DNA of 64,000 bases from an uncultured Elusimicrobiales bacterium (GTDB lineage: Bacteria; Elusimicrobiota; Elusimicrobia; Elusimicrobiales; Elusimicrobiaceae): contig CALVGG010000003.1 of assembly GCA_944327085.1 (NCBI GenBank), positions 1 through 64,000 of the forward strand, read 5' to 3'. A program made the translations under genes and the position numbers. Below the pieces are notes generated by a model. It did not search any database and had not been told where the DNA came from. It saw nothing but the letters and a program-made list of their open reading frames with translations. How positions within the stretch are numbered: position 1 is the stretch's first letter; each line of letters opens with the position of its first letter. Positions 33,609 to 36,775 of the stretch are shown here, one piece after another.

Positions 33609-35324
33609 TTAATCTTCTACCGCAGGGTCTTTAATTCCTGCTTCGGCAAAGCCTTTGGCGCGCAGTTTGCAGGAATCGCAATGGCCGCAGGGTTTTTGTC
33701 CGCCGGCATAGCAGCTCCACGTCAGTTCAAAAGGAACTTTTAACTTAGCCCCCAGGCGCACAATATCCGTTTTGGACAGGCGCATAAGCGGAGCCAACAC
33801 TTCCACCCCTTCGGTTACGCCCATTCTGGTGCCGCGGTTAATGGCTTCGGCCGCCGCTTTAAAGAACGACGGGGTACAATCCGGATAGCCGGAAAAATCC
33901 ACCGCGTTGGGCCCGGCCACAATGGCGTTGGCGCCAATGGAATCCATTAACGAAGCCGCTATAGACAAAAACATCAGGTTGCGCCCCGGCACATAAGTGG
34001 AGGGAATGGACGAGTTTTCTATTTGTTCCAAAGGCAAATCCGGCAGGGATTGGCTTTTGTCTACCAAAGAACTGCTTTTAAGCCAGGGGAAAGGCAAATC
34101 TATTTTATGCAGTTTTACGCCTAATTTTTTGGCGATAAACTCGGCCGAAATAACTTCCCGGTCGTGCCGTTGTCCATAGGTAACGGTAATGGCTTCACAC
34201 TCATAGCCTTTGCTAAGTGCCCAATACAGGCAGGTGGTAGAATCCAACCCGCCGGAAAACAGCACAATGGCTTTTTTCTTCCTGCCGCCAGCCGGCTGGC
34301 GCACACGCTGCGTTTCGTCCGGCACGCCGGTTACATCAGCCTGGGATACCCCTTCCTGCAGTAAAGCATCCACATGGTCCATCACCGGTTTGGCGGAAGG
34401 CATGGGGGCACCTTTTTTGTGGAAAGTGTTTAGCAAGTCCGCCTTCAATTCTTCTTCTTCTTTGCGTACCGTATTTAACAACCCGCGAAATAACCCCGTT
34501 ATTTTTTGGCTGGAACGTGTTTTTTCCTGTGCGGGCGTTTCCTGCGGCTCAGCTGCGGGCGCCACTTGCGCCTCGTCCAAAGAGGGCATACTCACTTCCG
34601 GTTCGGCAGGGGTGTCTTCCTCCCCGGTCAGATAGCCGGGTGCCTTTTGCCCATACGGGAAACACACCGCATAAGGCTGCCCTTCCACAAACTGAAAGGT
34701 GGGGATAAGCGGCAAGCCGTTTACGCGAAACGCAATAGCGGCGTCTTCTTTAGCGGTTTTGGGGCCTTGCTTTAAAAATTCCACATAGCGTAAAGTGTTT
34801 CTAATGTCTGAAACGGTATTTTCCGCATTGCCAAAACCCTGCAAAAAATCTTTCAATGCGCTTACGCACATAAAATCTTCCACGTCTTCCGGGTCACCAA
34901 ACAATCCGCTGGGAACCAAAAGCACATCGCGGCTTAAACTTTTTAAATGGGTGGCCAATGTATAAAAGTTGCAAAATCCTCCCATAAAAATTTGGCAGGC
35001 CTGCTGGGCGGCAAACACGGCTTTGGTGCCGGCAGTGGTAACCACCAAAGCAGGGATTTTGGCATCAGCCTTGGCCGCAACCGCCGGGGAATTATCGCGG
35101 TGTTCAAACCCGTCCGGAAACTGCAGCTCGGAATATACTTCATACTGCGGGTGTTCGTTTCTAAAAGCAACGGCCGTATCGGTATTTTCAAAAATCAAAA
35201 CATCTTTTTTGCCCGCGTGCAGCAGCTGGCAAACCGTAGTGGCGCTGCGCAGCACATCCACCACTACTACATAATCTTTCCATATTTTGCATTCTTCTTT
35301 GGTTTTAGCTATTAGTACGTTCAT
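33609..35324 (-). CDS. queC: ComB-like phosphatase fused to QueC (7-cyano-7-deazaguanine synthase)
   Basis: 571 residues in one uninterrupted frame. Residues ~1-230 match the ComB (2-phosphosulfolactate phosphatase) family: VVVVDVLRSATTV, FEHRDNSPAV, VVTTAGTKAV, GDPEDVEDFMCV. A disordered Pro/Glu/Ala linker (~230-345) follows. Residues ~347-571 are QueC: the PP-loop VLFSGGLDSTTC (~357), YVPGRNLMFLSIA, AIVAGPNAVDFSGYPDCTP, and the zinc site CYAGGQKPCGHCDSC. QueC makes preQ0, precursor of queuosine, with ATP. The ComB-type phosphatase role in this context is unknown. Starts 20 bases inside the lipoprotein gene. Confidence 0.9.
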   Translation of the reverse strand: MNVLIAKTKEECKIWKDYVVVVDVLRSATTVCQLLHAGKKDVLIFENTDTAVAFRNEHPQYEVYSELQFPDGFEHRDNSPAVAAKADAKIPALVVTTAGTKAVFAAQQACQIFMGGFCNFYTLATHLKSLSRDVLLVPSGLFGDPEDVEDFMCVSALKDFLQGFGNAENTVSDIRNTLRYVEFLKQGPKTAKEDAAIAFRVNGLPLIPTFQFVEGQPYAVCFPYGQKAPGYLTGEEDTPAEPEVSMPSLDEAQVAPAAEPQETPAQEKTRSSQKITGLFRGLLNTVRKEEEELKADLLNTFHKKGAPMPSAKPVMDHVDALLQEGVSQADVTGVPDETQRVRQPAGGRKKKAIVLFSGGLDSTTCLYWALSKGYECEAITVTYGQRHDREVISAEFIAKKLGVKLHKIDLPFPWLKSSSLVDKSQSLPDLPLEQIENSSIPSTYVPGRNLMFLSIAASLMDSIGANAIVAGPNAVDFSGYPDCTPSFFKAAAEAINRGTRMGVTEGVEVLAPLMRLSKTDIVRLGAKLKVPFELTWSCYAGGQKPCGHCDSCKLRAKGFAEAGIKDPAVED

Positions 35325-35742
35325 TTAAAATCCCCAACACTTCAAAATCTTCAATGGCTTTTTTGTCTTCTTCGGATAAATTATCCACATATTTAATGGC
35401 GTAAATAATCAGCGTTACTTTCGGCACGGCGGCGCCGTCTTCGGCGCTGTTATATTGGCCCAAAAGCATGGCGTCCGCCCCTTTGGAGGCTACAAACTTG
35501 CGGCCTCTTTCCACCCCGCGGCGCAGGGATTCCCGGTCCGGGTCCACATTTTTGATACGCAAAAGGCCTAAATTGCCGTACGGACGGGTAATATCTTCCC
35601 GGCCGGTAACAAGCTCCACCTTGCCGGATTTATTGGGCGGAAAGTCCGGCCCGATGGCGATCCAGTCCATATTCACATGGTCCAGTGTGGCACAGCCGGC
35701 CAATAACAACAGCCATACCGGTAAAAAAATAAGTTTTTTCAT
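35305..35742 (-). CDS. Lipoprotein of unknown function
   Basis: 145 residues. Lipobox LLLLAGC with Cys at ~17, then a small alpha/beta domain (GADAMLLGQYNSAEDGAAVPKVTLIIYAIKYV) like small outer-membrane lipoproteins with repeated strands. ATG 35742 follows AGGAGA with good spacing; an upstream ATG at 35748 overlaps the SD. It starts 14 bases after rlmN ends and runs into the ComB-QueC gene by 20 bases. No family recognised. Confidence 0.8.
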   Translation of the reverse strand: MKKLIFLPVWLLLLAGCATLDHVNMDWIAIGPDFPPNKSGKVELVTGREDITRPYGNLGLLRIKNVDPDRESLRRGVERGRKFVASKGADAMLLGQYNSAEDGAAVPKVTLIIYAIKYVDNLSEEDKKAIEDFEVLGILNERTNS

Positions 35743-35755
35743 AAGCATCTCCTAT

Positions 35756-36775
35756 TTATTTGCGTGTGGCCAACTGCCCGCAGGCGGCAAGCACGTCGTT
35801 GCCCATACTTTTGCGGATAGTAACCCCTATACCCATTGCTTTTACGGCGGCAGCAAAGTCTTTCACTACTTTATCGTCCGTCTTTGCGCCGCGCCCCAAG
35901 TTACACGCTATTAAATTAACGTGTATTAAATAATTGTCTTTAATACCAAAAATCCACTTCGCCAGTTTGCGGATATGCTCCGGCCGGCTGTTTACGTTTT
36001 CCAATACGGAATATTCCAAAAACACCTGTCGGCCCGTCATGGCGATGTATTCTTCCACCGCTTTTTGCAGTTCTTCTAAATTAAAACGGCGGTTTACGGG
36101 CATCATTTTGCTGCGTTCGGCGTCGTCTGCATTATGCAGAGAAACGGCCAAATTGGCCTGCGGCAAATCCACCGCCAGCTTGTGCAGTTTATCGGCAATA
36201 CCGGCCGTGGAAATGGAAATGTGCCGCGCCCCGATGTTTAAATAGTCCGGGTTGGATAAATCCCGCGCGGCTTTTACCACATTTAAATAATTTAAAAGCG
36301 GTTCCCCCATACCCATAAATACCACGCTGGAAATACGCTCCCCCAGTTTTTCTTTACGCACGTATTGATACCACATTAAAACCTGGTCAGTAATTTCCTC
36401 TTCGGTTAAATCCCGTTTAAAGCCCATTTTGCCGGTACTGCAAAAAGAACATCTAAGCGGGCAGCCCACCTGGCTGGATACGCATACGCTCCAAGTATCC
36501 TGCGGTTTTAAAAGCACGGTTTCTATTTGCAGTCCGTCGCGCAGGGTTAGCAGGGCCTTGGCGGCTTTGTCTTTTTGGGAAAAGACCATCTTGCTTACGG
36601 TAAAACTTAAAAGGGGGTATTTTTGTTTTAAGTCTTCCCGCACCTCAGCAGGCAGAGAGGTGGCCTCATCCCACGAAGATATACCGCGTTTAAAAACGGC
36701 CTCCTGCACTTGTGCAATGCGGAAATTGGGCAGCCCCAGCTTTTTGATGTGTTCTTTTACGGCTTCAAAATTCAT
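35756..36775 (-). CDS. rlmN: 23S rRNA (A2503-C2)/tRNA (A37-C2) methyltransferase
   Basis: 339 residues. Radical-SAM enzyme: the 4Fe-4S cluster Cys are in GCPLRCSFCSTGKMGF (~105-120), followed by the GMGEPLLNY SAM motif and the AVSLHNADD stretch. The C-terminal catalytic Cys lies in NDVLAACGQLATRK. N-terminal helical domain (LGLPNFRIAQVQEAVFKRG) is the RNA-binding part. Methylates A2503 of 23S rRNA and A37 of some tRNAs. Confidence 0.96.
   Translation of the reverse strand: MNFEAVKEHIKKLGLPNFRIAQVQEAVFKRGISSWDEATSLPAEVREDLKQKYPLLSFTVSKMVFSQKDKAAKALLTLRDGLQIETVLLKPQDTWSVCVSSQVGCPLRCSFCSTGKMGFKRDLTEEEITDQVLMWYQYVRKEKLGERISSVVFMGMGEPLLNYLNVVKAARDLSNPDYLNIGARHISISTAGIADKLHKLAVDLPQANLAVSLHNADDAERSKMMPVNRRFNLEELQKAVEEYIAMTGRQVFLEYSVLENVNSRPEHIRKLAKWIFGIKDNYLIHVNLIACNLGRGAKTDDKVVKDFAAAVKAMGIGVTIRKSMGNDVLAACGQLATRK

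What the first reader, a model, noticed from the sequence alone, without database searches (positions are those of the whole stretch)
33609..35324. ComB-like phosphatase fused to QueC
A single open frame joins a ComB (2-phosphosulfolactate phosphatase family) domain, a ~115-residue disordered linker and a complete QueC with PP-loop and zinc Cys. I do not know this fusion. A ComB-type phosphatase on a preQ0 synthase could remove an inhibitory product or work in an unrecognised deazaguanine branch.
Basis: partly seen in the sequence, partly recalled or inferred. Interest (0 to 1): 0.7.

Follow-up and report, generated by a model that had tools for sequence, protein, structure and literature searches.

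The report
Phosphatase-like domain fused to preQ0 synthase
In gut Elusimicrobiota bacteria an ordinary enzyme of tRNA queuosine synthesis (QueC) is joined in one protein to a ComB-fold, phosphatase-like domain that is a separate neighbouring gene in related families; the join is real and old, but the added half can be lost, so what it does is still open.

Summary
Window 33609-35324 (-) is one 571-residue frame: a PF04029/ComB-fold domain (about 1-225), a disordered linker (236-346) and a complete QueC (348-571). It is not an assembly artefact: the same fusion occurs in at least 33 genomes of two genera of Elusimicrobiota. In the sister family the two genes lie side by side in an order-wide lipoprotein-comB-queC-queE operon, usually with a 4-base overlap (33 of 48 pairs). 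The fusion therefore arose from coupled neighbours, most simply once. QueC is standard. The ComB half is a distinct subfamily: ComB fold (Z 25), general PF04029 site residues kept, but below every ComB equivalog cut-off, with ComA absent from 61 genomes, so 2-phosphosulfolactate is an unlikely substrate. In the window's lineage the site is intact and under purifying selection. In a sister clade it is eroding, and it was lost at least twice while the rest of the queuosine pathway remained, so it is not needed for preQ0. Best reading: a hydrolase of unknown substrate, tethered to QueC because they were operon partners. New domain combination, ordinary QueC, unsolved ComB substrate.

The parts
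34650..35324 (-). ComB-fold (PF04029) domain, residues 1-225; conserved site residues D23, R26, T30, E66, N78, S79, P80, N119, E149, D150, D194; subfamily marks S65, D77, P138, R179
34284..34649 (-). Linker, residues 226-347; disordered by prediction from about 236 to 346, weak helix 280-301; 10 to about 307 residues long across fused relatives
33609..34283 (-). QueC (preQ0 synthase) domain, residues 348-571, with PP-loop SGGLDS and four-Cys zinc cluster
35305..35748 (-). Small lipoprotein gene directly upstream, overlapping the fused gene by 20 bases; conserved first gene of the lipoprotein-comB-queC-queE operon across the order, function unknown
35756..36775 (-). rlmN-like gene (name from sequence appearance), upstream neighbour conserved in the fused loci

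Best explanation
A genuine gene fusion that arose from two translationally coupled operon neighbours. The C-terminal half is an ordinary preQ0 synthase feeding tRNA queuosine synthesis. The N-terminal half is a divergent ComB-fold hydrolase that in the window's lineage still has a complete site and most likely still works as a metal-dependent phosphatase on a small phosphate ester other than 2-phosphosulfolactate. The two are joined by a flexible linker and act as separate catalysts. The phosphatase-like half is an accessory that keeps company with preQ0 synthesis but is not required for it. Shown: architecture, operon origin, selection, losses, conserved site. Inferred: that it is a phosphatase, that it is active, and anything about its substrate.
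For: Fusion in 33 genomes of two genera. Lipoprotein-comB-queC-queE order in 48 loci of relatives, with a 4-base comB/queC overlap in 33. QueC tree needs only three changes of state, fitting one fusion and two losses. ComB model pLDDT 96.5, Z 25 to 1VR0 and 2Z0J. Ten columns invariant across Elusimicrobiota and 18 ComB homologues of other phyla. Window-clade ComB dN/dS 0.02-0.12, close to its QueC at 0.02-0.07. QueD, QueE, FolE, QueF, TGT and QueA all in the window's genome, and QueF, TGT and QueA also in genomes without ComB.
Against: No activity or substrate is known for this subfamily; conserved residues show a constrained site, not phosphatase chemistry. The long-standing operon association across the order hints at a closer functional tie than 'accessory'.
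Confidence: 0.55

Rival explanations
1. The ComB half acts directly in preQ0 chemistry, for example by hydrolysing pyrophosphate or AMP released by QueC, or a phosphorylated intermediate, as a dedicated accessory of 7-deazaguanine synthesis.
For: Order-wide comB-queC-queE operon with coupled starts; fusion to QueC itself; one genome (G052) that lacks QueC, QueD and QueF also lacks ComB while keeping TGT and QueA.
Against: Two losses of ComB with the queuosine pathway kept; ComB left the operon with its site intact in G247 and G053; a ComB with the same motifs sits in G279, where no QueC was found in an 81% complete genome.
Confidence: 0.25
2. The ComB half is no longer an enzyme but a folding, anchoring or regulatory appendage of QueC.
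For: In a sister clade of 26 sequences E66, T96 and G99 are kept in only 13, 7 and 12, and R26 in 20; ComB dN is 2.5 to about 20 times that of QueC in pairs of that clade, against a median of 1.4 in the unfused relatives.
Against: In the window's own clade and in the second fused genus the general site residues are kept; many changes in the sister clade are conservative (E to D, T to S), and D23, S79, N119, D150 and R179 never change there.
Confidence: 0.12
3. It is a true 2-phosphosulfolactate phosphatase (coenzyme M or sulfolactate synthesis) fused by chance.
For: PF04029 match and ComB fold.
Against: ComA absent from all 61 genomes; TIGR00298 38 bits against a cut-off of 175, and all other ComB equivalogs missed; subfamily-specific S65, D77, P138 and R179 that homologues of other phyla mostly lack.
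Confidence: 0.04

Closest known systems
QueC, 7-cyano-7-deazaguanine (preQ0) synthase; solved as 3BL5 and 2PG3
   Same: Whole domain, PP-loop, zinc Cys cluster, equivalog cut-off passed, rest of the queuosine pathway present
   Different: Carries an N-terminal ComB-fold domain and a long disordered linker
ComB, 2-phosphosulfolactate phosphatase; 1VR0 (C. acetobutylicum), 2Z0J (T. thermophilus), 2YYV (T. maritima)
   Same: Fold (Z 23.5-25.6, about 20% identity) and ten columns conserved across PF04029
   Different: Below all ComB equivalog cut-offs; GE(R) motif replaced by (F/Y)SE, a Pro at 138, extra R179; no ComA; gene next to queC instead

Membership tests
QueC (TIGR00364 / PF06508) | Score above curated cut-off | tested here: met
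   219 bits vs 150.3; 246.7 bits vs 22
QueC (TIGR00364 / PF06508) | PP-loop SGGxDS and C-terminal zinc cysteines | tested here: met
   SGGLDS at 357-362; C538, C546, C549, C552 invariant in fused relatives
QueC (TIGR00364 / PF06508) | preQ0 pathway partners in the genome | tested here: met
   QueD, QueE, FolE, QueF, TGT, QueA found
QueC (TIGR00364 / PF06508) | preQ0 formation by the protein | not testable with these tools
   needs an assay or complementation of a queC mutant
PF04029 superfamily (ComB-like) | Profile match and ComB fold | tested here: met
   86.5 bits vs 26.4; Z 25 to 1VR0 and 2Z0J
ComB, 2-phosphosulfolactate phosphatase (strict) | Equivalog cut-off (TIGR00298 and PRK00886 set) | tested here: not met
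   38.2 vs 175.05 bits; best of the others 52.9 vs 235
ComB, 2-phosphosulfolactate phosphatase (strict) | ComA making the substrate | tested here: not met
   0 of 61 genomes; the control rings in B. subtilis and M. jannaschii
ComB, 2-phosphosulfolactate phosphatase (strict) | Phosphatase activity on 2-phosphosulfolactate | not testable with these tools
   no assay

The most novel reading that the evidence does not exclude
The Elusimicrobiales ComB-like protein is a dedicated accessory phosphatase of 7-deazaguanine synthesis, acting next to QueC and QueE in a four-gene operon with a lipoprotein, a role not described for any ComB relative.
Probability: 0.25. Interest if true: 0.65.

Novelty: new variant of a known kind. 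Interest (0 to 1): 0.42.

Why it matters
ComB-family proteins are found in bacteria that have no coenzyme M pathway, and their role there is unclear. A group in which one subfamily is tied to queC and queE by operon, then by fusion, gives a concrete place to look for a substrate, and the natural series of intact, eroding and lost copies lets the role be tested by comparison. E. minutum is cultured and appears to carry the short-linker form.

Tried and rejected
Assembly artefact: rejected, fusion in 33 genomes. Coenzyme M or sulfolactate role: ComA absent. Pterin phosphatase for folate (ComB making dihydroneopterin for FolB): FolB is absent from all 43 genomes tested, the window's genome has a PTPS-III-like enzyme (ExxHxH) beside folP and folK and many of the sister family have CExxHGH hybrids (motif definitions from PMC5041015), so no dephosphorylation step is called for. 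ComB-queC linkage in other phyla: none of the loci L167-L188 has a queC match within the flank; five of them look like gcvT-comB-ftsK (neighbour names from sequence appearance, not profile-tested). A second PF04029 hit in the genome (C12, 18.8 bits) is an ankyrin protein. Literature: no paper in the held library joins 2-phosphosulfolactate phosphatase with queuosine, and none found describes a QueC fusion of this kind; preprints and most subscription journals are not held, and InterPro or UniProt architecture tables could not be consulted.

Full report
Observation. The frame 33609..35324 (-) is real and single: 571 residues from ATG to stop. Pfam places PF04029 at 11-173 and PF06508 QueC at 351-562, both well above their cut-offs. 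NCBIfam calls the C-terminal part QueC at 219 bits against 150.3. The full-length model has two folded domains, confident in the first and mixed in the second, joined by a linker with pLDDT mostly below 50. The linker is coding: close relatives keep the frame with dN/dS 0.19-0.25.

Not an artefact. In the genus of the window 31 genomes carry PF04029 in a frame of 564-786 residues, and a second genus has it in 2 genomes (468 and 491 residues); QueC lies in the same frame in those checked. Named relatives are Elusimicrobiota MAGs.

Origin. In the sister family ComB and QueC are separate genes. In 48 of 56 Elusimicrobiota loci fetched by a ComB search, comB is followed directly by queC and then queE, with a small lipoprotein gene upstream in nearly all; 7 of the rest are fused and one is cut by the contig end. 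The best comB-stop to queC-start distance is a 4-base overlap in 33 of 48. In the fused loci the order is rlmN, lipoprotein, fused gene. A tree of 67 QueC domains needs three changes between fused and unfused. One fusion and two later losses is the simplest account; the tree alone cannot tell gain from loss, and the base of the genus is unresolved. Genomes of the genus without ComB show lipoprotein then queC with only a few bases between (L107: 5964 and 5970) and no PF04029 anywhere, which favours loss in place. Linkers run from 10 residues in the second genus to about 307.

QueC half. Ordinary: PP-loop, zinc cysteines, best solved relatives 3BL5 and 2PG3. The window's genome has QueD (CxxxHGH, profile hit), QueE and FolE in one cluster with folP, a PTPS-III-like enzyme and folK (the names QueE, FolE, FolP and FolK rest on my reading of the sequences and were not profile-tested), plus QueF, TGT and QueA.

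ComB half. The domain model (pLDDT 96.5) matches 2Z0J, 1VR0 and 2YYV at Z 25.6, 25.0 and 23.5, with the next chain at 3.5. D23, R26, T30, E66, S79, P80, N119, E149, D150 and D194 are invariant in 69 sequences that include 18 ComB homologues from other phyla. S65, D77 and P138 are constant in the unfused Elusimicrobiales proteins and absent from those 18, and R179 is present in 2 of 18, which marks a subfamily. It misses every ComB equivalog cut-off, and ComA is absent from 61 genomes. That the domain is a phosphatase is inferred from family and site, not shown.

Selection. The positions compared were chosen as at least 97% constant in 61 unfused proteins, not from the fused ones. In the window's clade (10 sequences) all the general site residues are kept; in the second genus (4) all but one D194, in a copy that was cut short for the alignment. 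In the remaining 26 fused sequences E66 is kept in 13, N78 in 17, T96 in 7, G99 in 12 and R26 in 20, with many conservative changes. Window-clade ComB dN/dS is 0.02-0.12 against 0.02-0.07 for QueC in the same pairs; in four pairs of the other clade it is 0.07-0.15 against 0.02-0.04, and one distant pair gives 0.23 against 0.11. In unfused relatives the medians are 0.17 and 0.11, with a ComB to QueC dN ratio of 1.4, over many pairs that are not independent. So ComB is constrained in the window's lineage, and relatively faster where the site erodes. Several dS values exceed 1 and are imprecise; one pair (L029, L065) was mis-split by the script and is not used.

Function. The operon association says that ComB and preQ0 synthesis have been encoded together over most of the order. 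The losses say that ComB is not needed for queuosine: the ComB-less genomes keep QueC, QueD, QueF, TGT and QueA, apart from gaps in incomplete assemblies. In G247 comB lies on another contig, leaving lipoprotein-queC in place, yet keeps every site residue; in G053 it lies about 6.5 kb from queC. One genome, G052, lacks ComB, QueD and QueF and has only a weak QueC-profile match, but keeps TGT and QueA: a single case of joint absence, at 89% completeness. I therefore favour an active hydrolase that works in the company of preQ0 synthesis without being a required part of it.

Novelty. No paper in the held library links ComB with queuosine or was found to describe such a QueC fusion, but relatives' sequences have been public, so 'undescribed in what I could search' is as far as I can go. 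The combination is a new variant of known parts.

Noticed in passing
L099 7963-8337 and 10224-10568 (own genome C2, about 192.9-195.6 kb); L209-L212, L215-L217, L224: The window's genome has two PTPS-family enzymes, QueD (CRNLHGH) and a second with ExxHPH beside folP and folK, while many of the sister family have one with CExxHGH, the motif described for a hybrid serving folate and queuosine (PMC5041015); FolB is absent from all 43 genomes tested. Looks like a hybrid enzyme split into two.
   Followed up: partly
window 35305-35748 (-); L103 6021-6428; L105 4897-5235: Small lipoprotein without a recognised Pfam domain, conserved first gene of the comB-queC-queE operon across the order and retained when ComB is lost.
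   Followed up: partly
window 34422-34496 (residues 277-301 of the fused protein): A short predicted helix (around KITGLFRGLLNTVRKEEEEL) inside the otherwise disordered linker is conserved in the window's clade.
   Followed up: no
G169: L093 5623-6297 and L082 1453-2118: A relative of the same family has a different type of ComB-like gene and a divergent QueC (35% identity) on separate contigs, perhaps replacements.
   Followed up: no
L217 3201-4973; L224 921-2786: FolK-like N-terminus in frames of 590 and 621 residues in two sister-family genomes, possibly fused to another domain.
   Followed up: no
L167, L168, L174, L176, L178: ComB homologues of Ignavibacteria and relatives sit in a recurring neighbourhood, apparently between gcvT and an FtsK-like gene, with no queC near.
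   Followed up: partly
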